The translations under genes and the position numbers were made by a program. This document shows positions 4,163-32,136 of a stretch of 45,146 bases of DNA, in pieces. The stretch lies in contig JAIEOP010000070.1 in NCBI GenBank assembly GCA_019750465.1, positions 1 to 45,146 on the forward strand, given 5' to 3'. The notes beneath the pieces were generated by a model that saw nothing but the letters and a program-made list of their open reading frames with translations, searched no databases and was not told where the DNA came from. How positions within the stretch are numbered: the first letter of the stretch is position 1; the number at the start of each line of letters is the position of its first letter. The stretch comes from Acetobacteraceae bacterium (GTDB taxonomy: Bacteria; Pseudomonadota; Alphaproteobacteria; Acetobacterales; Acetobacteraceae).

Positions 4163-4171
4163 GCCCAAATC

Positions 4172-6480: not shown

Positions 6481-7934
<1,454 letters not shown>

Positions 7935-7966
7935 GATGCGCGCTCCGGCATCCGGGCGGGACTGAG

Positions 7967-10507: not shown

Positions 10508-10516
10508 GAAGAGCGC

Positions 10517-10531
10517 TGGAGTTGGGATTGC
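10517..10531 (+). promoter_or_regulatory. sigma54-like -24/-12 element before ntrX
   Basis: TGG at 10517-10519 and TTGC at 10528-10531 have the exact spacing of the RpoN consensus (GG and GC 10 bases apart), but the CAC following the first GG is AGT here. It sits in the 126-base gap between ntrY and ntrX. It could give ntrX its own nitrogen-responsive transcript. Partial consensus match only. Confidence 0.3.
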
Positions 10532-10569
10532 GTTTGGCTTGTAAGATCAATCGCCGGGGAGGGGTGAAC

Positions 10570-10644
10570 GTGTGCAGCAACCTCAGCGTGCGCCGGGCCT
10601 TGATCCTTGTCGTGTTCCGGGCGAGGCATCCGCATGGCGCATGA
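10570..10644 (+). CDS. possible 24-residue upstream ORF overlapping the ntrX start
   Basis: A GTG-initiated frame encoding 24 residues, beginning CSNLSVRRALILVVF after the initiator. A GGGGAGGGG block ends 6 bases before the GTG at 10570. The TGA at 10642-10644 lies just inside ntrX, whose ATG is at 10634, so reading the small frame could couple translation to ntrX. There is no homology to lean on. It may be chance, since GTG frames are frequent in this base composition. Confidence 0.25.
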   Translation: MCSNLSVRRALILVVFRARHPHGA

Positions 10645-12052
10645 GATCCTCATCGTCGATGACGAGCCCGACATCCGCGCGCTCATCGACGGCATCCTGA
10701 CCGACGAGGGCTACGAGACCCGGCAGGCGCACAACAGCGATGCGGCGCTGGTCGCGTTCCGCCAGCGCAAGCCCGCGCTCTGCGTGCTCGACATCTGGCT
10801 GCAGAATTCGAGGCTCGACGGCCTCGGCATCCTGGAGGCGATGCAGCGCGAGGAGCCGGCGGTGCCCTGCGTGATGATCTCCGGCCACGGCACCATCGAG
10901 ACCGCGGTGCGCGCCATCCAGCACGGCGCCTACGACTTCATCGAGAAGCCGTTCAACTCGGACCGGCTGCTGCTGGTGGTCAGCCGCGCGCTGGAAGCCT
11001 CGCGGCTGCGGCGCGAGAACAGCGAGCTGCGCCTGCGCGCCGGACCGGAGACCGAGCTGGTCGGCGCCTCCACCGCCATGAACCAGCTGCGCGCCGCCAT
11101 CGAGAAGGTGGCGCCCACCGGCTCGCGGGTGCTGATCACCGGCCCCGCGGGCTCGGGCAAGGAGGTGGCGGCGCGCATGATCCACGCCCGCTCGCGCCGC
11201 GCCGATGGCCCCTTCGTCGCGCTGAACTGCGCCACCATGGCCCCGGCCCGCTTCGAGGAGGAGCTGTTCGGCGTGGAGCCCGGCACCGACCCGGCCGCCC
11301 AGCCGCGCCGCGCCGGCATGCTGGAGCGCGCGCATGGCGGCACGCTGCTGCTCGACGAGGTCGCCGACATGCCGCTGGAGACCCAGGGCAAGATCGTGCG
11401 CGCGCTGCAGGAGCAGGGGTTCGAGCGGCTTGGCGGGGGGACGCGGGTGAAGGTCGATGTGCGCGTCATCGCCACCACCAACCGCGACCTGCAGGCGGAG
11501 ATCGCGGCGGGGCGGTTCCGCGAGGATCTCTACTATCGCCTCGCCGTGGTGCCGCTGAAGATCCCGGCGTTGCGCGAGCGGCGCGACGACGTGCCGGGGC
11601 TGGCGCGGCACTTCATGGCGCGCTCCGGCGAGACCTCCGGCATGCCGTCGCGCGAGATCGCCGAGGACGCGCTGGCGGCGCTGCAGACCTATGACTGGCC
11701 CGGCAATGTGCGGCAGCTGCGCAACCTGGTGGACTGGCTGCTGATCATGGCGCCGGGCGAGGCGCGCGACCCGATCCGCGCCGACATGCTGCCGCCCGAG
11801 GTGGGCGCGGCGGCGCCGGCCATGCTGAAGCTCGATCGCAGCAGCGAGATCATGACCCTGCCGCTGCGCGAGGCGCGTGAGCTGTTCGAGAAGCAGTACC
11901 TGGAGGCGCAGCTGCTGCGCTTCGGCGGCAACATCAGCCGCACCGCGAACTTCGTCGGCATGGAGCGCAGCGCGCTGCACCGGAAGTTGAAATTCCTCGG
12001 CGTCCATGCCGATGACCGGCAGCCGAGCCCGGGGGCCGCGGCGGGGCTGTAG
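10634..12052 (+). CDS. ntrX: nitrogen regulation response regulator NtrX
   Basis: 472 residues. Receiver domain with phosphoacceptor Asp53 (CVLDIWLQNSRLDG), AAA+ domain with Walker A GPAGSGKE (170-177) and Walker B GTLLLDEVADMP, and a C-terminal helix-turn-helix (GGNISRTANFVGMERSALHRKLK). The sigma54-binding GAFTGA loop is absent: after ELFG the chain runs GVEPGTDPAAQPRRAGML (213-230). Alphaproteobacterial NtrX proteins are known for this loss and probably regulate sigma70 promoters. The ATG at 10634 puts the conserved HEILIVDDEPDIR at the N-terminus. It is the partner of NtrY and lies 126 bases after it, the only sizeable gap in the ntr cluster. Confidence 0.95.
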   Translation: MAHEILIVDDEPDIRALIDGILTDEGYETRQAHNSDAALVAFRQRKPALCVLDIWLQNSRLDGLGILEAMQREEPAVPCVMISGHGTIETAVRAIQHGAYDFIEKPFNSDRLLLVVSRALEASRLRRENSELRLRAGPETELVGASTAMNQLRAAIEKVAPTGSRVLITGPAGSGKEVAARMIHARSRRADGPFVALNCATMAPARFEEELFGVEPGTDPAAQPRRAGMLERAHGGTLLLDEVADMPLETQGKIVRALQEQGFERLGGGTRVKVDVRVIATTNRDLQAEIAAGRFREDLYYRLAVVPLKIPALRERRDDVPGLARHFMARSGETSGMPSREIAEDALAALQTYDWPGNVRQLRNLVDWLLIMAPGEARDPIRADMLPPEVGAAAPAMLKLDRSSEIMTLPLREARELFEKQYLEAQLLRFGGNISRTANFVGMERSALHRKLKFLGVHADDRQPSPGAAAGL

Positions 12053-12098
12053 GGCAGGGGGCGCGGTCTCGGCCACGGCCGCCGCGAATGGGGAAACC

Positions 12099-12971
12099 AT
12101 GTCGAGAATTGCCTATGTCAACGGCCGCTACCTCGATCAGCGGCTGGCCGAGGTGAACATCGAGGACCGCGGCTACCAGTTCGGCGACGGCATCTACGAG
12201 GTCGTGCACCTGCACGCCGGCCGCTTCATCGACGAGGATCGGCATCTCGACCGGCTGGAACGCTCCCTGCGGGAGATCGCGTTGCCGATGCCGCTCGCGC
12301 GCGCCGCGCTGCGCCACGTGCTGGCGGAAGTCGCGCGTCGCAACCGCGTGACCGAGGGCCTGCTCTACATGCAGGTGACGCGCGGCGTCGCCCGGCGCGA
12401 CCATGCCTTTCCGGCGAAGCCGGTGCCGCCGGCGCTGGTGGTGACCGTCAAGCGCATCCCGCCCTACCCGACCGATGCGGAAAGCTGGGCCGGCGCCTGC
12501 ATCACCCACCCCGACCTGCGCTGGGCGCGGCGCGACATCAAGAGCGTGAACCTCCTGCCCAACTGCCTTGCCCGCCAGGCGGCGCGCGAGCAGGGGGCGA
12601 TGGAGGCCATCCTCTACGACGAGGCCACCGGCATGGTCACCGAGGGCGCTGCCACCACCTTCTGGATCGTCGACGAGCGGGGCGTCATCCGCACCCGCCA
12701 CCTGGACCACGTGATCCTCCCGGGCTGCACCCGCGGCGCGCTGCTGGCGGAGCTGCAGGCGGCCGGGATCGCCTTCGAGGAACGGGATTTCTCGCTGGAC
12801 GAGATGCGCCGGGCGCGCGAGGCCTTCATCACCTCCGCGACCTCCTTCGTGAAGCCGATCACCCGCATCGACGGCCAGCCGGTCGGCGACGGCAGGGTCG
12901 GCCCCGTGACGCGGCGGCTGTTCGACCTGTTCGCCCGCCACGTGAAGGGCGATCGCAGGAACGCTGCGTGA
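12099..12971 (+). CDS. dat: D-amino-acid aminotransferase (class IV PLP enzyme)
   Basis: 290 residues, fold-type IV aminotransferase. EDRGYQFGDGIYEVV at the N-terminus and RRDIKSVNLLPN with the PLP lysine (Lys148) are characteristic of D-alanine transaminases (the family pattern is DIKSLNLL). GAATTFWIVD and ITSATSFVKPIT near the C-terminus complete the family signature. It would interconvert D-alanine and D-glutamate via 2-oxo acids, feeding peptidoglycan synthesis or D-amino-acid use. The ATG at 12099 lies after a GGGGAAACC segment and about 47 bases after ntrX. The next gene starts inside its stop (GTGA). A dat gene between ntrX and hfq is a known alphaproteobacterial arrangement. Branched-chain aminotransferase activity is a less likely alternative. 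Confidence 0.9.
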   Translation: MSRIAYVNGRYLDQRLAEVNIEDRGYQFGDGIYEVVHLHAGRFIDEDRHLDRLERSLREIALPMPLARAALRHVLAEVARRNRVTEGLLYMQVTRGVARRDHAFPAKPVPPALVVTVKRIPPYPTDAESWAGACITHPDLRWARRDIKSVNLLPNCLARQAAREQGAMEAILYDEATGMVTEGAATTFWIVDERGVIRTRHLDHVILPGCTRGALLAELQAAGIAFEERDFSLDEMRRAREAFITSATSFVKPITRIDGQPVGDGRVGPVTRRLFDLFARHVKGDRRNAA

Positions 12972-13648
12972 GCCCGATCGGGGCGCCCAGCGCCATCCTC
13001 TGGGACTGGGACAACACGCTGGTCGATGGCTGGGCCGCCATCCAGGCCGGGCTGAACGCCGCGTTCCGCGCCCACGGCCTGCCCGAATGGGACCGCGCGA
13101 CGGTGCTGCGCAACGTCCGGCGCGCGCTGCGCGAGAGCTTCCCGGAGCTGTTCGGCGCGACGCATTGGGAGGCCGCGCGGGACATCTTCTATGCCGAGGT
13201 GCGTGGCTGTCACCTCGACGTTCTGAGGCCCTTGGCAGGCTCGGCGGAGGCCATCGATGCCGCCGCGGCGCTGGCGCCACAGGCGGTGGTCAGCAACAAG
13301 CAGGGTCCGCTGCTGCGGGCCGAGGCGGCGCATCTCGGCTGGGACCGGCACTTCGCCGCGCTGGTCGGCGCGGGCGACGCCCGCCGCGACAAGCCCGATA
13401 CGGCGCCGCTGCTGCTCGCCCTCGACGCGTGCGGCGTCGCCGCGGGGCCGTCGGTGTGGTATGTGGGTGACACCGCGCTCGACATGCAGGCCGCCCGTGC
13501 CGCGGGTTGCACGGCGGTGCTGCTCGGCGATGCGCATCATGACGGCGGGCTGGGCAATGCGGCGCCCGATCACGCATTTGCGGGCGGTCATGCGCTGGCC
13601 GCGCATCTGCGATCCCTTGCCAAGCGCCATCGCACGGTCAATCTCTGA
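12968..13648 (+). CDS. HAD-family hydrolase (phosphoglycolate phosphatase-like)
   Basis: 226 residues. HAD motif I is [12 protein letters not shown] (nucleophile Asp14, second Asp16), motif II is AVVSNKQG, motif III contains the Lys of [11 protein letters not shown], and motif IV is [17 protein letters not shown]. The small helical cap between motifs I and II fits the Gph/phosphatase subfamily. The start is GTG overlapping the dat stop (GTGA at 12968-12971), so it is co-translated with the aminotransferase. Its substrate is unknown; phosphoglycolate or another small phosphate ester is possible. A gap of 185 bases before hfq follows, in which I saw GC-rich sequence but no clear signal. Confidence 0.88.
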
Positions 13649-13833
13649 CCTGTCGGTGGGCAAGGCCCGCCGGCCGGGGACGGTCGCCGCTGCGGGCGTG
13701 GCCGGTCGCGGGGGCAGGGGATGCCGCCGCGCCGGACCTGCCCGCGAGCGTCCGGGGCAGGGGTGGCGTGTGGCCATCACCCTGTCACGGCGTTGGCCGC
13801 CACTCCCGCCACCAACAAGAAGGACGACCCGCC

Positions 13834-14172
13834 GTGGCCGCCGAGAAGTCCCAGAACGTGCAGGACGTTTTCCTGAACCACGTTCGCAAGAGCAAGACCC
13901 CCGTGACGATCTTCCTCGTCAATGGCGTGAAGCTGCAGGGGATCATCACCTGGTTCGACAATTTCTCCGTCCTGCTGCGCCGGGACGGACATACCCAGCT
14001 CGTCTACAAGCACGCGATCAGCACGGTGATGCCGGGCGCGCCGATCCAGCTCTTCGACGCCACCGCGGCGGCCCAGGGCGTGGCGGCGCAAGGTGCGACG
14101 GTGCAGCGCGAGGGCACGACCCTGACAATGGCCCCGCGTGAGCGCGAGACGAGTCCCGCCGGCGGGAATTAG
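13834..14172 (+). CDS. hfq: RNA chaperone Hfq
   Basis: 112 residues. The Sm1 motif ([21 protein letters not shown]) and Sm2 motif ([17 protein letters not shown], with the diagnostic YKHA) are intact; Hfq forms a hexamer that pairs small RNAs with messages. An unstructured C-terminal tail of about 35 residues rich in Ala, Gln and Thr is longer than in most Alphaproteobacteria. The GTG start at 13834 is preferred because AAGAAGGA ends 9 bases upstream and the family's AEKSQNVQD follows directly; the frame further upstream lacks family character. hflX begins inside or just after this gene, the usual hfq-hflX pairing. Confidence 0.96.
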
Positions 14173-15622
14173 GGCCATTTCGCGCCCCGGACACGAAAGG
14201 CCCGACACGCGCCCCCCGCACGGGCTCGGCGGGCCGCAGCCGGAAGCGGCAAACGACCGCGGCGCCGGCGATATCGCGGTGCCGACGCGTGCCGCGGTGA
14301 TCCTGCCGCATGAGCGTTCGCCACGCGGCCCCGCCGCGCGCGCCGAGGGCGCCTCCGCCGCGCGTGCGGCCGAGGCGCGGCTGGCCGAAGCAGTGGGCCT
14401 GGCCACCAGCATCGGCGTCACCATCCTCCACACCGCGATCTTCCCGCTGCGCGACCGCCGGCCCAGCACCCTGCTCGGCGTGGGCCAGGTCGAGGCGGCG
14501 AAGCAGGCCATCGAACAGCACGGCGTCACCGTCACCGTCGTCGATGCCGCGCTGTCGCCGGTGCAGCAGCGCAACCTTGAGCGCGCCTGGGGCTGCAAGG
14601 TCATCGACCGCACCGGGCTGATCCTGGAGATCTTCGGCGAGCGCGCCCGTACCCGCGAAGGCGCGCTCCAGGTCGAGCTCGCCCACCTGGAATACCAGCG
14701 CACCCGCCTGGTGCGGTCCTGGACCCATCTGGAGCGCCAGCGTGGCGGCTTCGGCTTCCTCGGCGGCCCCGGCGAATCGCAGATCGAGATCGACCGCCGC
14801 CTGATCGGCGAGCGCATCGTCAGGCTGAAGAAGGAGCTGGAGCAGGTGCGCCGCACCCGCGGCCTGCACCGGCGTGCCCGCGAGCGGGTGCCCTACCCGG
14901 TGATCGCCCTCGTGGGCTACACCAATGCCGGCAAGTCCACCCTGTTCAACGCGCTGACCGGCGCCGGTGTCCATGCGCAGGACCAGCTCTTCGCCACGCT
15001 GGACCCGACCATGCGGGCCATCCGACTGCCCTCCGGCCGCAACGCCATCCTGTCGGACACCGTGGGCTTCATCTCCGAGCTGCCGACGCAGCTCGTCGAG
15101 GCGTTCCGTGCCACGCTGGAGGAGGTGGCCGCCGCCGACATCATCCTGCACGTGCGCGACATCGCCCATCCCGATACGGCGGCGCAGCGGGCCGACGTGC
15201 TCGGCGTGCTGCACGACATGGCCGCGGGGACCGACGCGGCGCTGGACGAGGGCTGGGAACGCCGCGTCGTCGAGGTGCTGAACAAGGCCGACCTGCTGGG
15301 CGGCATCGCCGGCGTGCCCGGGCAGGCGGATGGCGGGGCCGCAGGCGAGGCCGCGGCCGAGGGGGCGCCCATCGCCGTCTCGGCACTGACCGGCGAGGGG
15401 CTCGACGCGCTGCGGGCGCGGCTCGATGCGCTGCTCGCCGCCGGGCTGGAGACGGTCGACTACGCCATTCCCGCCGACGACGGCGCGCGCCTTGCCTGGC
15501 TCTACCGGCATGGCGAGGTCATCGCGCGGCAGGACGCCGACGACGCCTCCGGCGCCGTGCATGTCACGGTGCGGCTCTCGCCCGCTGATCGCGCGCGCTT
15601 CGAAGGCACGCCGCTGGCGTGA
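14138..15622 (+). CDS. hflX: GTPase HflX
   Basis: Up to 494 residues. The N-terminal HflX domain ([10 protein letters not shown], then [15 protein letters not shown]), the coiled Gly-rich linker ([19 protein letters not shown]) and the G domain (G1 [13 protein letters not shown]3 DTVGFI, G4 NKAD) are all present. HflX splits stalled ribosomes under stress. The start is uncertain. GTG at 14138 overlaps hfq by 35 bases. GTG at 14279, just before PTRAAVIL, would give about 447 residues, close to the usual size, and no clear Shine-Dalgarno supports either. The stop overlaps the next gene (GTGA at 15619-15622). Confidence 0.92.
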
Positions 15623-16497
15623 GCCACGGCATCGACGCGCGGCGCGCCGCCGACATCGCCGCGCTGCTGCGCCAGGCCGCCCGCGCCGAGGTCCTGCCGC
15701 GGTTCCGCCGGCTGGCCGACGGCGCGGTGCGCGCCAAGTCCGGGCCGCTGGATCTGGTCACCGATGCGGACGAGGCGGCGGAGCGGCTGATCGCCGATGG
15801 CCTGCGTGCGCTCCTTCCCGGCTGCCTCGTCGTCGGGGAGGAAGCCGCGGCGGGCGATCCTGCGCTGCTGGACGGGCTCGGCGACGCCGATCTCGCCTTC
15901 GTCGTCGATCCGGTGGATGGCACCGCGAATTTCGTCGCCGGCGTGCCGGTCTTCGGCAGCATGGCCGCGGCGATCCGGCGCGGCGAGGTGGTCGCCGCCT
16001 GGATCCACGATCCTGTCGGCGATGACACCGCCATGGCGCTGCGCGGGGAGGGGGCCTGGGTCGAGGACACGGCCGGGCGCCGCCAGGCGCTGCGCGCGGC
16101 GGCCCCGGTCCCGGTGGAGCGCATGATCGGCGCCATCTCCTGGGGCTTCATGGCCGAGCCGCTGCGGAGCCGGGTCGCAGCGCGGCTGCCGCGCCTCGCG
16201 GCCGCGGTGGGATATCGCTGCGCCGCGCAGGAGTACCGGCTCGCGGCCGCCGGGCACGTGCACCTGCTGGTCTACAACCGGCTGCTGCCCTGGGACCACG
16301 CGCCGGGCTGGCTGCTGCACCGGGAGGCGGGTGGCCACGCGGCGCAGTTCGATGGCTGCCCGTATTCCCCGCTGGTGCGGACCGGCGGGCTCATCTGCGC
16401 GCCCGACCGGGCCAGTTGGCAGGCAGCCAGGGACGCGCTCGGCATCGGCCGGAACGACGGCGGTTTGCGTCCGGCCCCGGACGCTTCACCGCTGTAG
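15619..16497 (+). CDS. inositol monophosphatase family protein
   Basis: 292 residues. Metal-binding motifs of the IMPase/CysQ/FBPase superfamily are visible: VGEEAA (Glu of motif A), FVVDPVDGTANFVAGVPVFG (motif B, DPxDGT), and a C-terminal LLPWDHAPGWLLHREAGG (WDxAPG). It should dephosphorylate a small sugar or nucleotide phosphate in a Mg-dependent reaction; inositol-1-phosphate, histidinol phosphate and 3'-phosphoadenosine nucleotides are all possible substrates. GTG at 15619 overlaps the hflX stop, so it ends the hfq-hflX operon. The 501 bases that follow contain no gene. Confidence 0.9.
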   Translation: MSHGIDARRAADIAALLRQAARAEVLPRFRRLADGAVRAKSGPLDLVTDADEAAERLIADGLRALLPGCLVVGEEAAAGDPALLDGLGDADLAFVVDPVDGTANFVAGVPVFGSMAAAIRRGEVVAAWIHDPVGDDTAMALRGEGAWVEDTAGRRQALRAAAPVPVERMIGAISWGFMAEPLRSRVAARLPRLAAAVGYRCAAQEYRLAAAGHVHLLVYNRLLPWDHAPGWLLHREAGGHAAQFDGCPYSPLVRTGGLICAPDRASWQAARDALGIGRNDGGLRPAPDASPL

Positions 16498-16998: not shown

Positions 16999-17811
16999 TC
17001 AGGCGCCCGGCTCCGCCGCCTTCACCGCCTGCCACTCCGCCTCCATGGCGTCGAGCGGAACATCCGCCGGCGCCAGGCCGCGGGCCGCAAGGCGCGCCTC
17101 CACGGCGTCGAACCGGCGGGCGAACTTGCGATTGGCTGCGTCCAGGCAGGCTTCCGGGTCGATGTCCAGCTTGCGGGCAAGGTTGGCCAGCACGAACAGC
17201 AGGTCGCCGACCTCGTCGGCCAGCCGCGTGCGGTCCGCGCCAGGCAGTTCCGCGCGCAGCTCCGCGGCTTCCTCCTCCAGCTTGTCCAGCACGGCCGCGG
17301 CGTCGGGCCAGTCGAAGCCCACCCGGGCGGCGCGCCGGGTCAGCTTGGCGGCGCGGGTGAGGGCGGGGAGGCCTGCAGGCACGCCAGCCAGCGTGCCGGT
17401 CTCGGCCCGGGCAGCGCGCTCGGCGGCCTTGCCGGCCTCCCAGGCGGCGGTCTGGGCCGCGGCGTCGCGGGCGGCGTCGGCGCCGAAGACATGCGGGTGC
17501 CGGCGGATCATCTTCTCCGCAATGATCCGGGCGACGGCGGCGAAGTCGAACCAGCCGCGCTCCTCCGCCATGCGGGCGTGATAGACGACCTGGAACAGCA
17601 GGTCGCCCAATTCATCCAGCAGCGGACCGGGAGTTGGGCCGCGGCGGATGGCGTCTGCGACCTCGTAGGCCTCCTCGATGGTGTAGGGGGCGATGGAGGC
17701 GAAGTCCTGCGCCCGGTCCCAGGGGCAGCCGCCATCCGGATCACGCAGCCTGGCCATGACCGCGAGGAGTTCGGTGAGCGCCGTTGCGGCGGCGTCGGGG
17801 TCGGGCTGCAC
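16999..17811 (-). CDS. mazG: nucleoside triphosphate pyrophosphohydrolase MazG
   Basis: About 270 residues, like E. coli MazG (263). Two tandem MazG domains are visible, each with the EExxE...D metal-binding helices: LRDPDGGCPWDRAQDF with TIEEAYEVADAI and LLDELGDLLFQVVYHARM in the first, and LEEEAAELRAEL with RLADEVGDLLFVLANLAR in the second. It hydrolyses NTPs and dNTPs to monophosphates and pyrophosphate, cleaning the pool and affecting ppGpp responses. The frame runs open to 17934, but the GTG at 17811 is preferred because AGGA lies 11 bases before it and the conserved part starts soon after; GTG at 17847 is another option. hflX-mazG proximity is common in Alphaproteobacteria. Confidence 0.93.
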   Translation of the reverse strand: MQPDPDAAATALTELLAVMARLRDPDGGCPWDRAQDFASIAPYTIEEAYEVADAIRRGPTPGPLLDELGDLLFQVVYHARMAEERGWFDFAAVARIIAEKMIRRHPHVFGADAARDAAAQTAAWEAGKAAERAARAETGTLAGVPAGLPALTRAAKLTRRAARVGFDWPDAAAVLDKLEEEAAELRAELPGADRTRLADEVGDLLFVLANLARKLDIDPEACLDAANRKFARRFDAVEARLAARGLAPADVPLDAMEAEWQAVKAAEPGA

Positions 17812-17924
17812 GGCGGCGGAATTCCTGATCCGGGTGCGGCCTCTCACCGCAAGGCGGCGCTGCGTGCAAGGGGCAGGCGCGCGCGGCAGGGCGCGGCGGA
17901 CGCGGGGCCATGATCCGGCGCGGC

Positions 17925-17933
17925 TTATCCCCA
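17925..17933 (+). other. DnaA-box-like 9-mer
   Basis: TTATCCCCA differs from the DnaA box TTATCCACA at one position. It is 7 bases left of the dif-like site. A related 9-mer (TGTGGACAA, one mismatch on the other strand) lies at 17977-17985. Two single-mismatch boxes are too few to call an origin. Confidence 0.25.
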
Positions 17934-17940
17934 CGCCGAA

Positions 17941-17968
17941 TTACCGCATAAGATACATTATGGAAAAT
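17941..17968. other. dif-like XerC/XerD recombination site
   Basis: The 28 bases have dif architecture: an 11-base arm TTACCGCATAA (17941-17951), a 6-base core GATACA (17952-17957) and an 11-base arm TTATGGAAAAT (17958-17968). The inner CATAA and TTATG are inverted repeats around the core. Against E. coli dif (arms GGTGCGCATAA and TTATGTTAAAT) I count 19 of 28 identical positions, including CGCATAA in the left arm and 9 of 11 in the right. The site is in an AT-rich patch in the gap between divergent mazG and the cyclase gene, in otherwise GC-rich DNA. It would serve chromosome dimer resolution near the terminus, where XerC and XerD recombine and FtsK acts. Confidence 0.6.
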
Positions 17969-18116
17969 GATTGGGTTGTGGACAAGCTGGGGAAAACCCG
18001 CCCCGGTGGCGATCCGGACGCGCGCCGGACGCGCGACGGATCGCGGCGGCGTGTGCCGCGGCTACAGTGGCGCGACGCGTCGGCCCCGCGCCGCGCGGCC
18101 CGGAATGGAACGGCCC

Positions 18117-19808
18117 ATGACCCGCAAGCTGCACCTGGCCTCCGGTCTCGTCCTGTTCGCCTACCTCCTTGTGCATTTCGCCAACCACGCGCTGCTGGTC
18201 GTCTCGATCGGCGCGGCCGATGCCACCCTTGCGGCCATCCACCCATGGCTGGTCTGGGCGCCGGTGACCGGCGTGCTGCTTGCCGCGCTGGGCACCCACG
18301 TGACGCTTGCGCTCGTCGCGCTGTGGCGCCGCCGGACCCTGCGCTTCACGGCCTATGAGGCGCTGCAGTACGTGCTGGGCTTCGCCATGCCGCTCGCCCT
18401 GGTGCCGCACATCGCGCACACCCGCATCGCGGACAGCCTCTACGGCCAGAACTGGGGCTATTACCGGAACATGCTCTCGGTCTACTGGGAGCTCGATCCG
18501 GTGCAGGCGCTCAGCCAGGGCGCGCTGCTGCTGGCGGCCTGGACGCACGCCATGCTGGGGCTGAATGCATGGCTGCGGCTGAAGCCCTGGTTCCCGGCCG
18601 CCCGCCGTGCGCTCGGCGTCGCGGCGCTGCTGCTGCCGACCCTGGCCTTCGCCGGCTTCGTCGCCGGCGGCAACGAGGCGCGGCTGCGCCTGGCGACCGA
18701 CCCCGCCTTCCGCGCCCGCCTCATGGCCGACCTGCCGCCGCCGGAGATCCGTGCGGCGCTCGGCCGGAATGCCGACATGATCCGCTTCGCGCTGCTGGCG
18801 GCCCTGGCCGGGGTGCTGGGCGCGCGGCTCGTGCGCGACGCGCTGCGCCGCCGCGAGAGCCGGGTGCGCATCAGCTATCCCGATGGCCGCGGCATCGCGG
18901 TGCCGCGCGGCTTTTCCGTGCTGGAGGCGAGCTGGCTGCTGGGCGTTCCGCATGCCTCGGTCTGCGGCGGCCGCGGCCGGTGCTCCACCTGCCGGATCCG
19001 GGTTGCGGCCGCCGACCCCGCCGCGCTGCCGCCGCCCGATGCCGAGGAGGCGCGCGTGCTGGCCCGGATCAAGGCCACCCCCGACATGCGCCTGGCCTGC
19101 CAGCTCCGCCCGCGTGGGCCCGTGCGCGTGGTCCCCCTGCTCGATGCGGCGCAGCCGCCGCATGGCCTGCTGCGCTTCCGCGAACCGCTGCTGCTCGGCG
19201 AGGAGCGGGTGGTTGCCATCCTGTTCGCCGATATCCGCGGCTTCACCCGCATCGCCGAGCACCGCCTGCCCTTCGACGTGGTGCACCTGCTGAACCGCTA
19301 TTTCCGCGCCATGGGCGAGGCGGTGGAATCCGCCGGCGGCCGCGTGGACAAGTTCCTCGGCGACGGGGTGATGGCGCTGTTCGGCGCCGAGGAGGGGCGT
19401 GAGGAGGCGGCGGACCCGGCAGCGGCCTGCCGCGCCGGGCTCGAGGGCGCGCGCCGCATGTCGCTGGCCCTGGCGACGCTGAACCGCAGCGTCGGCCCGG
19501 AGATTGGCGAGCCGCTGCGGATCGGCATCGGCCTGCATGTCGGGCCGGTGATCCTGGGCGCCATGGGGCATGGCCGCACGGTCGGGCTGACCGCGATCGG
19601 CGACGCGGTGAACACGGCGAGCCGGCTGGAAGCGGCGACGAAGGCGCTGGGCTGCGAGCTGGTGGTGTCGCAGGCGGTGCTGGACGCGGCCGGGGTTGCC
19701 CTGCCCGATGCATCGGCGGCCCCGCACGAGGTGCAGGTGCGGGGCCGGCACGACCCGCTGAAGGTGCGGGCCGTGCCGCGCGCGGACGCCCTGCCCGCGC
19801 GCGGCTGA
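18117..19808 (+). CDS. adenylate/guanylate cyclase with cytochrome-like membrane domain and 2Fe-2S domain
   Basis: 563 residues. The N-terminal part (1-250) has several membrane helices and begins KLHLASGLVLFAYLLVHFANHALL (residues 4-27; His20 and His24), which resembles the cytochrome b subunit of succinate dehydrogenase or fumarate reductase. A ferredoxin-like domain follows with Cys283, Cys289, Cys292 and Cys328 (CGGRGRCSTC, then LACQL). The class III cyclase domain spans about 360-545, with metal Asp372 (FADIRGFT) and Asp416 (FLGDGVMALFG), and IGDAVNTASRLE. The protein probably senses a redox or respiratory signal at the inner membrane and makes cAMP or cGMP. ATG at 18117 follows GGAACGGCCC; ATG at 18105 is also possible. 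Similar three-part cyclases are known in Alphaproteobacteria. Confidence 0.9.
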   Translation: MTRKLHLASGLVLFAYLLVHFANHALLVVSIGAADATLAAIHPWLVWAPVTGVLLAALGTHVTLALVALWRRRTLRFTAYEALQYVLGFAMPLALVPHIAHTRIADSLYGQNWGYYRNMLSVYWELDPVQALSQGALLLAAWTHAMLGLNAWLRLKPWFPAARRALGVAALLLPTLAFAGFVAGGNEARLRLATDPAFRARLMADLPPPEIRAALGRNADMIRFALLAALAGVLGARLVRDALRRRESRVRISYPDGRGIAVPRGFSVLEASWLLGVPHASVCGGRGRCSTCRIRVAAADPAALPPPDAEEARVLARIKATPDMRLACQLRPRGPVRVVPLLDAAQPPHGLLRFREPLLLGEERVVAILFADIRGFTRIAEHRLPFDVVHLLNRYFRAMGEAVESAGGRVDKFLGDGVMALFGAEEGREEAADPAAACRAGLEGARRMSLALATLNRSVGPEIGEPLRIGIGLHVGPVILGAMGHGRTVGLTAIGDAVNTASRLEAATKALGCELVVSQAVLDAAGVALPDASAAPHEVQVRGRHDPLKVRAVPRADALPARG

Positions 19809-19821
19809 GTGCTGCCCTGCC

Positions 19822-19977
19822 CTACAGCACGTCGATGTCGGTGCCGGTGAGCTGGGCCGGCAGGGGGTCCTCGAAGAGGATCACCGTGGTCCCGCAACCC
19901 GGATTGGCCAGGCTGATCGCCATGTCCGCCCCGGCCTGGGACGATACTCGCGATATCGTGTTTTCCCGCGTGGGGAG
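19822..19977 (-). pseudogene. fragment resembling the C-terminus of an RTX/type I-secreted protein
   Basis: About 51 codons read leftward from just after the metallo-hydrolase stop to a TAG at 19822-19824. The translation includes SSQAGADMAISLANPG, then TTVILFEDPLPAQLTGTDIDVL before the stop. Secreted Ca-binding (hemolysin-type) proteins often end in just this way, with a GAD...ISL...L..V....LTA.DF-like run. No upstream RTX repeats or start codon of a full gene are present; the frame before it is the metallo-hydrolase gene. The simplest reading is a remnant left after deletion. An ATG at 19923 would give a 33-residue peptide if it is translated at all. Confidence 0.4.
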
Positions 19978-19978
19978 G

Positions 19979-20776
19979 TCAGCCGACCGGCACCTCCAGC
20001 ACCATCCCGTCGTAGCCGGGCTCGATGCCTGGCGGCAGCTCGCGCCGCAGCGCGCCGTAGTCCATCTCGATGCTCATATGCGTCAGCACGGTGCGCCGCG
20101 GCCGCAGCAGCGCCACCCATTCCAGCACCTGGTCGAGGTTGGCGTGGACCTTGTGCGCGCCCTTCTGGAAGCAGCCCACCACCCAGGTATCCAGCCCCTG
20201 CAGGTGCGGCAGGCTTTCCTCCGGCAGCAGCACCACGTCGGTCGAATAGGCGAAGCCGCCGACGCGGAAGCCGAGGGTGTCCATGACCCCGTGGTCCTGG
20301 CGGAACAGCGTGAGGCGCATGCCCGCGGCCTCCAGCACCTGGCCGTACTCCACCCGCACGGCGCTCAGCGCGGGCCGGTAGAAGAAGGGCGGCGTCGCGC
20401 CGATGAAGGCGTAGTCGAAGCGGTCATCGAGGCGGCTCAGCGTGGCGCGCGTGCCGTAGGCCGGCAGCTCCTTGCCGGTGAAGCGGTTCACCGCGCGCAG
20501 GTCGTCGATGCCGAGGATGTGGTCGGCATGCGCATGGGTGAACAGGATCGCATCCAGCCGCGCCTTCCCCGCCGCCAGCAATTGCTGGCGCAGGTCGGGG
20601 CCGGCATCGATCAGCAGCCGCCCGCCATCCGGTCCCTCCAGCAGGGCGGAGGTGCGGGTGCGGCGGTTGCGCGGCTCGGCCGGGTCGCATTCGCCCCAAT
20701 TGCCGCCCTCCCCCACGCCACCGATCAGCGGCACGCCGGCGGAGCCGCCGGTGCCGAGCAGCGTGACCCTCAGCAT
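19979..20776 (-). CDS. MBL-fold metallo-hydrolase (PhnP-like)
   Basis: 265 residues. A metallo-beta-lactamase fold with LLGTGGSAGVP at the N-terminus, HAHADH (His81, His83, Asp85, His86) as the zinc motif, RQDHGVMDTLGFRV and a late VLTHMSIEMDY. This subgroup, close to PhnP phosphodiesterases, is usually found directly after tatD in the tmk-holB-metG-tatD set of Alphaproteobacteria. Here a DUF805 gene on the other strand lies between the two. It probably hydrolyses a cyclic or linear phosphodiester; the real substrate is unknown. The ATG at 20776 was chosen because LRVTLLGTGG follows directly. Confidence 0.9.
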   Translation of the reverse strand: MLRVTLLGTGGSAGVPLIGGVGEGGNWGECDPAEPRNRRTRTSALLEGPDGGRLLIDAGPDLRQQLLAAGKARLDAILFTHAHADHILGIDDLRAVNRFTGKELPAYGTRATLSRLDDRFDYAFIGATPPFFYRPALSAVRVEYGQVLEAAGMRLTLFRQDHGVMDTLGFRVGGFAYSTDVVLLPEESLPHLQGLDTWVVGCFQKGAHKVHANLDQVLEWVALLRPRRTVLTHMSIEMDYGALRRELPPGIEPGYDGMVLEVPVG

Positions 20777-20833
20777 GGGTGGGCGCGGGCGGGCGATGCT
20801 AGGCTGGCCGGAAGGCGCAAGGAGGGTCGCGGC

Positions 20834-21298
20834 ATGGATTTCCCGACGGCGGTGAGAACCTGCCTGCAGAAATACGTGACCTTCGAGGGTCGGGCCACCC
20901 GCACCGAATACTGGTGGTTCGTGCTGTTCAGCGTTGGCGTGGTGCTGGTCCTCGGCATCCTGGGCGGCCTGTTCGGCGCGGTGCTGCTGATGGTCCTGGG
21001 CCTGGCGCTGCTGCCGCCGGGTGTCGCCGCCGCGGCGCGCCGCCTGCACGACACCGGCCGCAGCGGCTGGTGGCAGCTTGGCCCGGCGGTGCCGAACCTC
21101 CTCGGCGAGCTGGTCGGTTCGGACAGCCTGTTCGGCATCCTGCTCGGGATCGTGGGATTGGGGTTCAGCCTGGTGCTGATCTGGTGGCTGGCCAGCCCCG
21201 GCGACCCGGCGGCCAATGCCTATGGCCCGCCGCCCGGGACCCGGACCTCGGTCACGCCGCCGCCGCCCGCCGGAACAGGCGATGGAAATTGGCGGTAG
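20834..21298 (+). CDS. DUF805 inner-membrane protein
   Basis: 154 residues. Starts DFPTAVRTCLQKYVTFEGRATRTEYWWFVLF, the DUF805 signature, followed by membrane helices (GVVLVLGILGGLFGAVLLMVLGLALLP; ILLGIVGLGFSLVLIWWL) and RRLHDTGRSGWW. The function of the family is unknown; relatives include E. coli YhaH and YhaI. ATG at 20834 has AAGGAGG 8 bases upstream, the best Shine-Dalgarno in this region. Its last 47 bases overlap the end of tatD on the other strand. The gene breaks up a set that is normally contiguous, so it is likely an insertion. Confidence 0.92.
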   Translation: MDFPTAVRTCLQKYVTFEGRATRTEYWWFVLFSVGVVLVLGILGGLFGAVLLMVLGLALLPPGVAAAARRLHDTGRSGWWQLGPAVPNLLGELVGSDSLFGILLGIVGLGFSLVLIWWLASPGDPAANAYGPPPGTRTSVTPPPPAGTGDGNWR

Positions 21299-22034
21299 TC
21301 ACCGCGGCGAGCCGCGCCGGGTCGAGGCCCCGGACCTCTGCCAGCACCCGCGCGGTGTGCGCGACATGCGCCGGTTCGCAACGCTTGCCGCGCAGCGGGA
21401 CGGGGGCGAGGTAGGGCGCGTCGGTCTCCACCAGGATCCGGTCCTCCGGCAGGTCGCGGGCGATCTCGCGGATCTCCGGCGACCTGGGGAAGGTGAGGAT
21501 GCCGGAGAAGGAGACATAGCCGCCGATCTCCACCGCCTTTTCAGCGAGGTCGCGGCCGGAGCTGAAGCAGTGCAGGAGGAAGTCGAAATCCCCGCCCCGC
21601 GTGCGTTCGTCGCGCAGGATGGCCAGGATGTCGTCATCGGCCTGGCGGGCATGGATGACGATCGGCAGGCCGGCGATCCGCGCCGCCCGGATGTGCCGCC
21701 GGAACCCCTCGGCCTGCACGTCGCGTGGCGATGTGTCGTAGTGGTAGTCCAGGCCGCTCTCGCCGATGCCGATGATGCGCGGGTGATCGGCCAGGGCGGC
21801 CAGTTCCTCGACACTTGGCAGCGGAAGCTCACCGGCATTGTGAGGATGGATGCCGACCGTCCCCCAGACCGTGTCGGGGAAACGGTCGCACAGCGCCTTC
21901 ACCGCCGCGGCCTGGGCAAGGCGGGTGCCGATGGTGACCATGCGCGCCACGCCGGCGTCGCGGGCGCGGGTGACGACTTCATCGATCTCGGCCTCGGCGA
22001 AGTAGTCGAGGTGGCAGTGGGAATCGATCAGCAT
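21252..22034 (-). CDS. tatD: TatD-family metal-dependent hydrolase / DNase
   Basis: 260 residues. A TIM-barrel amidohydrolase with LIDSHCHLDYF (metal His6 and His8), GTVGIHPHNAGE, GIGESGLDYHYDTS, IVIHARQADDD, LHCFSSG, and LVETDAPYLAPVPLRGKRCEPAHV. It likely has 3'-5' exonuclease activity on DNA or RNA, as TatD proteins do. ATG at 22034 was chosen because the family's first strand begins there; the frame upstream runs into a REP-like repeat that translates as AGLGPAI and AKPGHDE. It follows metG in the same direction across a 102-base gap with that repeat. Confidence 0.95.
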   Translation of the reverse strand: MLIDSHCHLDYFAEAEIDEVVTRARDAGVARMVTIGTRLAQAAAVKALCDRFPDTVWGTVGIHPHNAGELPLPSVEELAALADHPRIIGIGESGLDYHYDTSPRDVQAEGFRRHIRAARIAGLPIVIHARQADDDILAILRDERTRGGDFDFLLHCFSSGRDLAEKAVEIGGYVSFSGILTFPRSPEIREIARDLPEDRILVETDAPYLAPVPLRGKRCEPAHVAHTARVLAEVRGLDPARLAAVTTANFHRLFRRAAAA

Positions 22035-22040
22035 GGCCTC

Positions 22041-22112
22041 GTCATGACCGGGCTTGGCCCGGCCATCCTGGTAGCAGGGGGGGGATATGGCCGGGCCAAG
22101 CCCGGCCATGAC
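22041..22112. repeat. REP-like palindromic inverted repeat pair
   Basis: The left arm at 22041-22065 (GTCATGACC, then GGGCTTGGCCCGGCCAT) is matched by its reverse complement at 22088-22112 with one mismatch in 25 bases. Each arm is itself palindromic (CCGGGC and GCCCGG around TTG). A run of 8 Gs lies between the arms. Repeats of this kind, reading as GRAKPGHD in translation, are widespread between genes in Alphaproteobacteria. It would form a large stem-loop in the metG-tatD message and may end transcription or protect RNA. Confidence 0.8.
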
Positions 22113-22136
22113 GGGAAAAAGCGCAGCGTCAGGTGC

Positions 22137-23684
22137 CTATACGGCGATCTCGATCTTGCGGAACAGCGGTGCCGGCGGCGGCAGGGCAATGCCCTCCGGC
22201 AGCGGCACCGCCAGGTTGGCCAGTCCCTGCTCCCCCGCCGGCACGCCAAGCTGGTCCAGCAGCGCCGCCATGCTGCCCGGCATGAAGGGGATCAACACCG
22301 TGGCGAAGCCGCGCAGCGCGGTGTGCAGGTGGCGCAGCACCACCAGCATGCGGGCCGGGTCGGTCTTCCGCAGTGCCCAGGGCGCCTGCTGGGTAATGTA
22401 GCCATTGGCCTCGCGCACGGCATGGAACACCGCTTCCAGCGCCAGGTGGAAATGCTGCTCGTCCAGCAGCCGGCCGACCGTCCCGGGCAGAGCAGCCACC
22501 TCGGCCAGCAAGGCTCGGTCCGCCTCCGCCGCCGCCGCCGGCGCCGGCAGCCGCCCCTCGCAGTTGCGCTGGATAAGGCTCAGGGTCCGCTGCGCCAGGT
22601 TGCCCAGACCGTCCGCCAACTCCCCGTTCAGTCGCCCGACCAGGGCCTTGCGGGCGAAGTCGCCGTCATTGCCGAAAGGGACCTCGCGCAGCAGGAAATA
22701 CCGCAGCGCGTCCAGGCCGAATTCCTCGATCAGCGCCAGCGGGTCGATGGCGTTGCCGAGGGATTTCGACATCTTCTGCCCCTCGATGGTCCACCAGCCA
22801 TGGGCGAAGACCCGCTTCGCAGGCGGCAGACCCGCGGCCATCAGGAAGGCCGGCCAGTAGACCGCATGGAAGCGCAGGATGTCCTTGCCGACGAAGTGCA
22901 CATCCGCCGGCCAGAACCGCCAACGCTCAGCGTTTTCATCGGGATAGCCGGCAGCGGTGAGGTAGTTCGTGAGCGCGTCCAGCCAGACATACATCACATG
23001 CGCCGGGTCGCCCGGCACCGGCACGCCCCAGGTGAAGGAGGTTCGGCTGATCGACAGATCCTGCAGCCCCGCCTTCACGAAGGCCCGCACCTCGTTGCGC
23101 CGGCTCTCGGGCAGGATCCCGATGGAATCGGGGTGGCCGGCGGGCAGGTCGTAGCGGCGCAGCAGTTCATCCGCCCACTTCGACAGGCGGAAGAAGTAGC
23201 TCGGCTCCCTCACCCATTCCACCGGGGCGCCGCTGGGGGCGTAGCGCACCCCGTCGCGCTCGGTCAGCTCGTCCGGGCCGTAGAAGGCCTCGTCGCGCAC
23301 CGCGTACCAGCCCTCGTAGTGGCCGAGATGGATCTCGCCGCGCGCCGCCAGCGCCTGCCACAGCGCCTGGCAGGCGCGGTGGTGGCGCGGCTCGGTGGTG
23401 CGGATGAAGTCGTCGTGGGAGAAATTCATCCGCTCCGCCAGCAGCCGGAAGGACTGGCTCACCCCGTCGGTGAAGGCCTGCGGCTCCATCCCGGCGTCGC
23501 GGGCCGCCTTCTCCACCTTCTGGCCGTGCTCGTCGGTGCCGGTGAGGAAGAACACCTCCTCGCCGGCGAGCCGCTTCCACCGCGCGAGAACATCGGTCGC
23601 CAGGGACGTGTAGGCATGGCCGATATGCGGCTTGTCGTTCACGTAGTAGATCGGCGTGGTGAGGTAGACCGGCTTGCGCGACAT
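22137..23684 (-). CDS. metG: methionyl-tRNA synthetase
   Basis: 515 residues, class I synthetase. HIGH motif (KPHIGHAYTSLATDV, near residues 19-33), GTDEHGQKVEKAA, and KMSKSLGNAIDP for ATP binding are present. No CxxC zinc-knuckle cysteines are visible in the connective domain, and there is no C-terminal dimerisation domain, so this is the short alphaproteobacterial type. It charges tRNA-Met for both initiation and elongation. Upstream, TTGGGG (23713-23718, minus strand) and TAAGCC (23691-23696) are 16 bases apart and could be a weak promoter. It lies 74 bases after holB. Confidence 0.97.
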   Translation of the reverse strand: MSRKPVYLTTPIYYVNDKPHIGHAYTSLATDVLARWKRLAGEEVFFLTGTDEHGQKVEKAARDAGMEPQAFTDGVSQSFRLLAERMNFSHDDFIRTTEPRHHRACQALWQALAARGEIHLGHYEGWYAVRDEAFYGPDELTERDGVRYAPSGAPVEWVREPSYFFRLSKWADELLRRYDLPAGHPDSIGILPESRRNEVRAFVKAGLQDLSISRTSFTWGVPVPGDPAHVMYVWLDALTNYLTAAGYPDENAERWRFWPADVHFVGKDILRFHAVYWPAFLMAAGLPPAKRVFAHGWWTIEGQKMSKSLGNAIDPLALIEEFGLDALRYFLLREVPFGNDGDFARKALVGRLNGELADGLGNLAQRTLSLIQRNCEGRLPAPAAAAEADRALLAEVAALPGTVGRLLDEQHFHLALEAVFHAVREANGYITQQAPWALRKTDPARMLVVLRHLHTALRGFATVLIPFMPGSMAALLDQLGVPAGEQGLANLAVPLPEGIALPPPAPLFRKIEIAV

Positions 23685-23758
23685 GGCGATGGCTTAGCAC
23701 GCGTGCGGCAGGCCCCAAAGCAGGTGGCTCCGAAGCAGGCGCTCCCTGGGTCGGCGGA

Positions 23759-24796
23759 TCAGGCGGCGCGCAGCCAGGCCAGCCCGGTCAGCACCGCCTG
23801 CCGCCGGTCGAGGTTCAGCCGCTCCGTCTCCTCGGCCAGCCGGCCGAGCCGGTCCCAGATCGCCGCCCAGTCCGCCAGCGGGCGCGCCGCAACCCACCCC
23901 GGCACATCGCCAGCGCCGCGCGCGGCGCTGCGCACCGCGCCCGTCAGCGCCCGCCGCAGCAGCGCCATGAAGGTGACGAAGGCGTCCAACTCACGCCCCC
24001 GCCCCGCGACCGCCTCGGCGATCGCATGCAGCACGCGCCCATCCATTGCCGGCAGGACGGCGAGCGCGCGATCCACCTCGGCCTGCATGGCCAGCCCCTC
24101 GCCCTCGGCCAGCGCCAGGGCCTGGCCGGGCGAGCCCTCCGCGATGCCGGCCAGGGCGGCACGCTCGGCCGCCGGCATGTCCGGCAGGGCCCCTGCCAGC
24201 AGCGCCTGCATGCCGGCCGCATCCAGGGGAAACAGATCGAGCCGCCGGCACCGGCTGCGGATGGTCGGCAGCAGCCGGTCGGGCTGGGCGGTGACCAGCA
24301 GCAGCACCGTGCGCGGCGGCGGCTCCTCCAGCGTCTTCAGCAGGATGTTCTGGAAGGCGGCGCTGTCGGCCCGATCGGCCTCATCGATGAGCACGACGCG
24401 CCAGCCGCCCTCGGCGGCGGTATGGGCAAGGAAGCGGTTGGCCTCGCGGGCGTCCTCCACCCGCAGCAGCTCCTTCCTGCCCCGGTCGCCGCGATTCGGC
24501 TCGAGCGTGATCATGTCGGCATGGGCGCCGGCCGCAACGCGCCGGAAGGCCGGATGCCCGGGCGGGACGTGCAGCGGCGGCTGGCCCGGCGCAGGGGGCG
24601 GCAGGCCGGCGAGCAGCCAGCGCGCGAAGCGATAGGCCAGCGTCGCCTTGCCGATGCCGGGCGGGCCGGCGAGCAGCCAGGCATGATGCAGGCGGCCGGC
24701 GCGCGCCGCCGCCTCCAGCGCCGCCGCCGCCGTGTCGTGGCCAACCAGCCCGGGATTCGCCCGCGGCTCCGGCAGGCTCACCGGACCCTCGCCCAT
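23759..24796 (-). CDS. holB: DNA polymerase III subunit delta'
   Basis: About 345 residues. A clamp-loader AAA+ protein with NPGLVGHDTAAAALEAA, Walker A-like GPPGIGKATLAYRFARW, VLIDEADRADSAAFQNILLKTLEEPP and the SRC-like box TIRSRCRRLDL. Delta' is the rigid stator of the clamp loader that loads the beta clamp at primer-template junctions. ATG at 24796 was chosen; a GTG at 24823 with GGAG 8 bases before it would add 9 residues and is also plausible. It starts about 40 bases after the tmk stop, and tmk-holB coupling is typical of Alphaproteobacteria. Confidence 0.94.
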   Translation of the reverse strand: MGEGPVSLPEPRANPGLVGHDTAAAALEAAARAGRLHHAWLLAGPPGIGKATLAYRFARWLLAGLPPPAPGQPPLHVPPGHPAFRRVAAGAHADMITLEPNRGDRGRKELLRVEDAREANRFLAHTAAEGGWRVVLIDEADRADSAAFQNILLKTLEEPPPRTVLLLVTAQPDRLLPTIRSRCRRLDLFPLDAAGMQALLAGALPDMPAAERAALAGIAEGSPGQALALAEGEGLAMQAEVDRALAVLPAMDGRVLHAIAEAVAGRGRELDAFVTFMALLRRALTGAVRSAARGAGDVPGWVAARPLADWAAIWDRLGRLAEETERLNLDRRQAVLTGLAWLRAA

Positions 24797-24839
24797 CGCC
24801 CGATTGCGCCCCGCCCGAGGCACTGCCCACGCTCCGCCC

Positions 24840-25466
24840 TCACCCCACCCCCAGCCTTTCCCGGATCGCGGCCATGATCGCCCCGGTCACCGCATCCGCC
24901 TCGGCCACCGCATCCACCACCACGCAACGCCCCGGCTCCGCGGCCGCGATGTCCAGGAACGCCGCCCGGATCCGCTCATGCACATCGACCCCGAGCGCCT
25001 CGTACCGGTTGGTCCCGCCCCGCGCCGCCGCCCGCGCCAGCCCTGTGGCCGGGGCGATGTCCAGCACCAGCGTCAGGTCCGGCCCGACCCCCTCCAGCGC
25101 GATCGCGGCCAGCCCGTCCCAGACCGCGCGCGGCGTGCCCTGCCCGGCCACCTGATAGGCGAGCGTCGAATCGGCAAAGCGGTCGCACACCACCCAGAGG
25201 CCGGCCGCCAGCGCCGGGCGGATGGTCCGCGCCAGGTGCTCCCGCCGCGCCGCGAAGTGCAGCATCGTCTCCGCCACCGGGTCCCAGGGTCCCGCCCCGA
25301 GCAGCACGGCGCGGATCGCCTCGGCACCGGGGGCGCCGCCGGGCTCGCGGGTGCGCAGCACGGGCAGGCCGGCGGCGGCCAGCGCGGCGGCAAGGCGGCG
25401 GGCCTGCGTGGATTTCCCCGCGCCCTCCCCGCCTTCCAGGGTGATGAAGCGGCCGGCCTGGCTCAT
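24840..25466 (-). CDS. tmk: thymidylate kinase
   Basis: 208 residues, the normal size. P-loop FITLEGGEGAGKSTQARRLA near the N-terminus, LRTREPGGAPGAEAIR (the dTMP-binding loop), VVCDRFADSTLAYQ and the lid region (RAAARGGTNRYE). It phosphorylates dTMP to dTDP. ATG at 25466 was chosen because the P-loop strand begins eight residues later; the frame upstream is open to 25898 but has no family character. It is the first gene of the tmk-holB-metG-tatD set and likely has its own promoter in the AT-rich stretch about 90-120 bases upstream. Confidence 0.96.
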   Translation of the reverse strand: MSQAGRFITLEGGEGAGKSTQARRLAAALAAAGLPVLRTREPGGAPGAEAIRAVLLGAGPWDPVAETMLHFAARREHLARTIRPALAAGLWVVCDRFADSTLAYQVAGQGTPRAVWDGLAAIALEGVGPDLTLVLDIAPATGLARAAARGGTNRYEALGVDVHERIRAAFLDIAAAEPGRCVVVDAVAEADAVTGAIMAAIRERLGVG

Positions 25467-25925
25467 GCGGGCATCTGGCCGCGGGAGGCGGCGGCGGTCA
25501 ACGGTGTCGGAATCGGTACGATGCAGTCTCGGAAAAGATTGATCTAGGAAAATTTTCTGATATCTTGTAGCATCATTGGCGGAAGGCAAGGTCCAGGCAT
25601 GACTATCCTCTCCCCTGCCCTCTTTGCCGCGAGCGTCCCACCCCCTGGTGCCTGCCCGGGCCGATGCGTGGCCCTTGGATGCCTGGCCCCTGGCAGATCC
25701 GTCCCGATCCCGGGCGTGATGCGTTGCAGCGCCGGGTCCCCCCTCAGGGCCGTGGGTCAGGACCTGTTCCGCCCCCAGCGGCGCCCCGCGGCCACCCCCG
25801 GCAGGGCTGCCACGGTGCAGCCGGCAAGGCGGGAATTGCGGGGCTTCCCGGCGCGGCGCCGGCCGGGCCGGGATTTGTCCGAACCGCGCAGGATGCACGA
25901 TTGCGGCAATATCGCGAGTCGGCCG
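25467..25925. other. 459-base gene-free gap between ycjF and tmk
   Basis: No frame with protein character was found. It contains an AT-rich island (about 25525-25580) in GC-rich surroundings, the likely tmk promoter region, and GC-rich inverted repeats such as GCGCGGCGCC near 25850-25865. A near-direct repeat starting GATGC and continuing with TGGCCC occurs around 25665-25695. No insertion sequence ends or attachment sites were recognised. Confidence 0.6.
25561..25589 (-). promoter_or_regulatory. weak promoter candidate for tmk
   Basis: On the minus strand TTGCCT (25584-25589) is followed after 17 bases by AAGATA (25561-25566), an imperfect -10 box. The position, about 95 bases before the tmk ATG inside an AT-rich island, is suitable. 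Pattern match only. Confidence 0.25.
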
Positions 25926-30178: not shown

Positions 30179-30206
30179 GCAGCGCGCAGGTCGGGCAGGT
30201 GCTGCA

Positions 30207-31124: not shown

Positions 31125-31144
31125 GCGAGAGGAAAACGACCGGC

Positions 31145-32119: not shown

Positions 32120-32136
32120 GGGCGGGGGACCGAGCG

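What the first reader, a model, noticed from the sequence alone, without database searches (positions are those of the whole stretch)
17941..17968. dif-like XerC/XerD site in an AT-rich patch between mazG and a cyclase gene
The site has two 11-base arms (TTACCGCATAA and TTATGGAAAAT) around a 6-base core (GATACA), with inner CATAA/TTATG symmetry and 19 of 28 matches to E. coli dif. It is intergenic and stands out from GC-rich surroundings. Neighbouring long operons run mostly toward it from both sides (ntr/hfq rightward, lpx/bam leftward), as expected near the terminus. If true, the window spans the replication terminus, and such sites are also used by Xer-dependent phages and plasmids. The gene-direction evidence is weak because the set is small.
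Basis: partly seen in the sequence, partly recalled or inferred. Interest (0 to 1): 0.72.

Follow-up and report, generated by a model that had tools for sequence, protein, structure and literature searches.

The report
dif site framed by DnaA-like boxes
The sequence is the single chromosome-dimer resolution site (dif) of a Roseomonas-type bacterium, lying at its replication terminus; the unexpected part is that in this bacterial family the site is framed, at fixed distances, by short boxes that look like those bound by the replication-start protein DnaA.

Summary
The 28-mer at 17941-17968 is real, exact and single-copy in the 6.04 Mb draft genome. It is dif. (1) Orthologous sites occur once per genome across the family. 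In two relatives with chromosome-scale contigs the site lies 49% of the circle from hemE, the usual alphaproteobacterial oriC landmark. (2) In relative G223 GC skew flips sign around the site. In G112 the best switch point of FtsK-orienting KOPS motifs over 320 kb is a 2-kb interval that contains it, and GGGCAGGG is the most polarised of 8,811 8-mers. (3) Inside the window itself KOPS run 13:2 before the site and 0:9 after it. (4) Neighbouring genes (hflX | MBL hydrolase, tatD, metG, holB, tmk) converge on dif, and mazG sits beside dif in several orders of the class. The same boxes are about 25-fold enriched upstream of hemE in these genomes, so they are probably DnaA boxes. Their role is unknown; I favour a DnaA complex at dif. 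Binding is inferred, not shown.

The parts
17941..17968 (+). dif, 28 bp: XerC-side arm 17941-17951 TTACCGCATAA, core 17952-17957 GATACA, XerD-side arm 17958-17968 TTATGGAAAAT
   Evidence: Exact sequence; single copy in the genome; orthologues one per matching genome; orthologue at the KOPS/skew switch in G112 and G223
17925..17933 (+). left DnaA-like box TTATCCCCA, 7 bp from dif
   Evidence: Conserved at 7-9 bp from dif in the box-bearing loci and at no other left offset in that orientation within 150 bp
17977..17985 (-). right DnaA-like box 1, TTGTCCACA on the minus strand, 8 bp from dif
   Evidence: Conserved at 7-9 bp from dif
17988..17996 (-). right DnaA-like box 2, TTTTCCCCA on the minus strand, 19 bp from dif and 11 bp on from box 1
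   Evidence: Conserved at 18-20 bp from dif
85..16052 (+). replichore arm left of dif: 13 GGGNAGGG KOPS-type motifs on + against 2 on - (GGGCAGGG 10:0)
   Evidence: best switch point 16045-19699 (tied with 13755-14891)
19699..34858 (-). replichore arm right of dif: 0 GGGNAGGG on + against 9 on -
16999..17934 (-). mazG (nucleoside triphosphate pyrophosphohydrolase); true start probably near 17790
   Evidence: PRK09562 E=1e-95, matching residues 53-306; next to dif in most family loci
18117..19808 (+). class III adenylate/guanylate cyclase with ferredoxin-like region, present between dif and the MBL gene only in close relatives
   Evidence: PF00211 E=1e-18, weak nqrF-type match; distribution
14138..15622 (+). 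hflX, part of the ntrY-ntrX-dat-hflX genes running toward dif
   Evidence: TIGR03156 E=4e-126
19979..25898 (-). MBL-fold hydrolase, tatD-type nuclease, metG, holB, tmk cluster running toward dif
   Evidence: same order next to dif in relatives

Best explanation
This is the chromosomal dif site at the replication terminus. FtsK is steered by converging KOPS motifs to this point and activates XerC/XerD, which recombine two dif copies and so turn a dimeric chromosome into two monomers. In the Roseomonas-type lineage dif sits inside a composite element: box - 7-9 bp - dif - 7-9 bp - box - about 2 bp - box. The boxes are most likely DnaA-binding sites, so I infer a small DnaA complex straddling dif. 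It could time or insulate Xer recombination, or act as a late-replicating DnaA sink. Shown here: site, copy number, terminus position, KOPS and skew switch, conservation and spacing of the boxes, and enrichment of the same boxes at the putative oriC. Inferred: Xer recombination at the site, DnaA binding, and any effect of that binding.
For: dif: exact 28-mer, single copy, one copy per matching genome. G223: skew + to - and KOPS 35:5 against 10:34, Fisher p=1.4e-9. G112: best KOPS switch 3,255,959-3,257,928 contains the site at 3,256,491, and GGGCAGGG is first of 8,811 8-mers for polarity. Window KOPS 13:2 against 0:9, Fisher p=4e-5. hemE-to-site distance 49.1% (G112) and 49.2% (G223) of the circle. 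FtsK gamma domain and Xer-type recombinases are encoded. Published A. tumefaciens dif TAATCGCATAAGATATATTATGGAACTT is close (PMC2731167). Boxes: 34 of 65 loci score at least 22/27, the other 31 at most 14/27, with no intermediates. Box background is 0.13 per kb, about 2e-4 chance of a box at each fixed spot. Spacers between boxes and dif are nearly all different (33 and 30 kinds in 33 loci) while boxes are kept. Boxes are at 5.3 per kb upstream of hemE against 0.22 per kb in the rest of the same loci.
Against: No experiment. The own genome is a draft, so terminus position is by orthology plus KOPS inside the window. GC skew in the window alone is uninformative. KOPS polarity inside the window is partly confounded with gene direction. 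The boxes deviate from strict TTATCCACA, and other proteins could read them. Some family members lack them, so they are not essential for dif function.
Confidence: 0.93

Rival explanations
1. dif, with flanking boxes bound by a protein other than DnaA, such as a lineage-specific Xer accessory or terminus-organising factor.
For: Fixed spacing to dif on both sides and confinement to one lineage suit a dedicated dif partner. Exact TTWTCCMCA is not over-represented genome-wide (18 against 19 for the reversed control in the own genome).
Against: The same boxes are concentrated upstream of hemE, where oriC is expected, and they match the classical DnaA box.
Confidence: 0.3
2. The boxes are degenerate extra Xer-binding arms: NTGKGGAWAA resembles the XerD arm TTATGGAAAAT, so more Xer subunits could load beside dif.
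For: Box and XerD arm share about 7 of 10 positions, and the arm itself scores 8/9 as a box (TTTTCCATA at 17959).
Against: The boxes stand as direct repeats of the arm rather than inverted across a 6-bp core, so they do not form a second dif. Loci with the same XerD arm lack boxes. The oriC enrichment is unexplained.
Confidence: 0.08
3. The AT-rich patch with DnaA-like boxes is the replication origin, and the dif resemblance is accidental.
For: DnaA-like boxes around an AT-rich patch.
Against: Skew and KOPS converge here, as at a terminus; hemE and a box cluster lie on the far side of the chromosome; the 28-mer is dif in genomes without boxes.
Confidence: 0.01
4. An attachment-site remnant of a Xer-using mobile element rather than the chromosomal dif.
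For: One phage contig carries the same 24-mer core directly after its terminase small-subunit gene.
Against: No second dif-like copy in the window or genome, no phage gene among the neighbours examined, and ancestral gene order on both sides.
Confidence: 0.01

Closest known systems
Classical XerC/XerD dif of Proteobacteria (Carnoy and Roten 2009, PMC2731167; Kono et al. 2011, PMC3025954)
   Same: 11-6-11 layout, CATAA/TTATG inner palindrome, conserved XerD arm, low GC, intergenic, single copy, at the terminus. The A. tumefaciens dif in PMC2731167 shares CGCATAAGATAYATTATGGAA.
   Different: Flanked at fixed distances by three DnaA-like boxes. That paper reports no apparent specific genetic environment for dif, whereas here mazG and often the MBL-tatD-metG-holB-tmk genes sit next to it in several alphaproteobacterial orders.
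cer/psi plasmid Xer sites with accessory proteins (ArgR, PepA, ArcA; reviewed in PMC5357621)
   Same: A Xer core with binding sites for another DNA-binding protein beside it.
   Different: cer carries about 180 bp of accessory sequence and is not chromosomal or FtsK-directed; here three 9-bp boxes lie within 20 bp of a chromosomal dif on both sides.
DnaA-box regulatory loci datA, DARS1, DARS2 of E. coli (PMC4585315)
   Same: Small intergenic clusters of DnaA boxes away from oriC that tune DnaA.
   Different: None is built around dif; no IHF or Fis context was examined here.

Membership tests
chromosomal dif (XerC/XerD) | 28 bp, 11-6-11, inner palindrome, conserved XerD arm | tested here: met
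chromosomal dif (XerC/XerD) | one copy per chromosome | tested here: met
chromosomal dif (XerC/XerD) | intergenic and AT-rich compared with the genome | tested here: met
   29% GC against 73%; intergenic by homology-based gene starts
chromosomal dif (XerC/XerD) | at the GC-skew extremum, opposite oriC | tested here: met
   In relatives G223 and G112; not testable directly in the draft own genome
chromosomal dif (XerC/XerD) | KOPS converge on the site | tested here: met
chromosomal dif (XerC/XerD) | genome encodes XerC, XerD and FtsK with gamma domain | tested here: met
   FtsK gamma over cut-off in all three genomes. Two full-length Xer homologues in G112 and G223, below the strict XerD equivalog cut-off, and only fragmentary in the draft own genome
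chromosomal dif (XerC/XerD) | XerCD recombination at the site | not testable with these tools
   needs an assay
DnaA boxes | 9-mer close to TTATCCACA | tested here: met
   At most 1 mismatch to TTWTCCMCA for all three boxes in the window
DnaA boxes | same boxes clustered at oriC of the same organisms | tested here: met
   hemE-upstream 5.3 per kb against 0.22 per kb; oriC itself is assigned by position and gene context
DnaA boxes | bound by DnaA | not testable with these tools
   needs footprinting or ChIP-seq
Xer-integrated mobile element (IMEX) junction | two dif-like copies flanking foreign genes | tested here: not met
   single copy, ordinary conserved neighbours

The most novel reading that the evidence does not exclude
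DnaA, the initiator of replication, binds in phase on both sides of dif in Roseomonas-type bacteria and directly gates Xer recombination or terminus replication. That would physically couple the protein that starts a replication round to the site where the round is resolved.
Probability: 0.25. Interest if true: 0.75.

Novelty: new variant of a known kind. Interest (0 to 1): 0.42.

Why it matters
A dif site as such is ordinary and expected in every bacterium of this kind. The fixed frame of DnaA-like boxes around dif, conserved in dozens of species while the spacer letters change freely, was not found in the papers searched. If DnaA binds there, the start and the end of the replication cycle share a factor at dif itself, and that is directly testable with two strains and one ChIP experiment. 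The window also gives a clean KOPS polarity switch in a 73% GC genome, and a gene neighbourhood (mazG) that marks dif in several alphaproteobacterial orders.

Tried and rejected
Origin of replication: suggested by the DnaA-like boxes, rejected by skew, KOPS and hemE position. RNA or cruciform stem between left and right boxes: the variable seventh letter agrees in 20 of 33 loci, close to the 17 expected from its frequencies, so no covariation. Boxes as promoter elements of mazG: mazG lies 6 to 946 bp from dif while the boxes stay at 7-9 bp, and loci with the same two neighbours but no boxes exist. Mobile-element junction: no second copy. GC skew inside the window shows no clear switch. One sampled stretch of G223 (1.225 Mb) is withheld and read as N. 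In one family-wide pattern search only 30 of 200 genomes matched, because the pattern was close to this lineage's own arm letters; absence there is not absence of dif.

Full report
Observation. The 28-mer TTACCGCATAA-GATACA-TTATGGAAAAT is at 17941-17968 exactly as described. It matches E. coli dif at 19 of 28 positions and is 29% GC in a 73% GC window. A dif-type pattern finds it alone in the window, with no chance match in 100 shuffles even at three mismatches, and the 28-mer occurs once in the 6.04 Mb draft genome at up to three mismatches.

Is it dif? The own genome is in 522 contigs, so the chromosome-scale tests were made on relatives. Pattern searches found one copy in each genome that matched. 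Two relatives have a chromosome-scale contig. In G223 (2.69 Mb, site at 1.327 Mb) sampled GC skew is positive in every readable stretch before the site and negative in every stretch after it, and GGGNAGGG motifs are 35:5 before and 10:34 after. In G112 (5.48 Mb contig, site at 3.256 Mb), whose gene order around the site (ntrX, dat, hflX, mazG, site, MBL, tatD) is that of the window, 320 kb around the site gave a best GGGNAGGG switch point of 3,255,959-3,257,928. The site is at 3,256,491. Of 8,811 8-mers with enough counts, GGGCAGGG was the most strongly polarised towards the site. hemE, the common neighbour of oriC in Alphaproteobacteria (own knowledge), lies 49.1% (G112) and 49.2% (G223) of the circle away, computed. 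Inside the window itself the motifs run 13:2 left of the site and 0:9 right of it, and one of two equally good switch intervals, 16045-19699, contains the site; gene direction may contribute to this local bias. FtsK gamma domains are present in all three genomes, and two Xer-type recombinases in both relatives. The published A. tumefaciens dif, TAATCGCATAAGATATATTATGGAACTT (PMC2731167), is close to the family's sites. I conclude that this is dif at about 97% confidence.

Neighbourhood. dif lies between mazG and a cyclase gene. In relatives without the cyclase, dif lies directly between mazG and an MBL-fold hydrolase followed by tatD, metG, holB and tmk, all reading towards dif. mazG next to dif is found also in Azospirillum, Hyphomicrobiales and other Alphaproteobacteria. 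PMC2731167 reports no specific gene environment for dif; in this class there seems to be one.

The boxes. Aligning 65 dif loci showed a feature outside the reported coordinates. In 34 loci dif is flanked by TTWTCCMCA boxes: one ending 7-9 bp before dif, one reversed 7-9 bp after it, and a second reversed one at 18-20 bp. The scores are bimodal: 34 loci have at least 22 of 27 matching letters, and the other 31 at most 14. Within 150 bp no left box in that orientation occurs at any other distance. The background rate in G112 is 0.13 boxes per kb, giving about 2e-4 per fixed position set. Spacers between boxes and dif are nearly all different, so the boxes are kept by selection rather than by recent ancestry. 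In a MazG tree the boxes are confined to the Acetobacteraceae/Roseomonadaceae group and need two changes, for example one gain and one loss in a subclade; the backbone is poorly resolved. In the window they are 17925-17933, 17977-17985 and 17988-17996.

What the boxes are. In 21 box-lineage genomes (including a few without boxes at dif) the region upstream of hemE carries the same boxes at 5.3 per kb against 0.22 per kb in the rest of the same loci. This, and the match to the classical box TTATCCACA, makes DnaA the likeliest binder. I give DnaA about 0.6, another protein about 0.3, and extra Xer arms about 0.08. These concern the boxes only; the 0.93 given for the best explanation is for dif at the terminus with a conserved box frame. 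What DnaA would do there (gate Xer recombination, insulate dif, or act as a sink for DnaA) cannot be decided from sequence.

Known or new. The site is a member of a known kind. Searches of the paper library found no report of DnaA boxes built around dif; the library lacks most subscription journals, so this is not proof of novelty. I file the whole as a new variant of a known kind.

Noticed in passing
L205 (IMGVR_UViG_3300006919_000731) 9493-9516, minus strand: A phage contig with portal and large terminase genes carries CGCATAAGATATATTATGGAAAAT directly after its terminase small-subunit gene, without flanking boxes: a candidate Xer-dependent attachment site matching alphaproteobacterial dif.
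   Followed up: partly
G000:C137 (L183) 2446-2466: The own genome has an inverted pair of perfect TTATCCACA boxes 3 bp apart upstream of genes that look like mraZ and rsmH (division cluster), perhaps DnaA control of that cluster.
   Followed up: no
window 18117-19808: A class III cyclase gene sits between dif and the MBL gene only in the closest relatives, so it was inserted beside dif in this sublineage.
   Followed up: partly
dif loci L121, L126, L131, L137, L144, L158: mazG, and in some the MBL-tatD-metG-holB-tmk genes, lie near dif in several alphaproteobacterial orders: a conserved dif neighbourhood that could help to find dif in drafts.
   Followed up: partly
G112:C3: Box and recombinase hits repeat at an offset of about 82.7 kb within C3, as if the contig were two copies of one replicon.
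   Followed up: no
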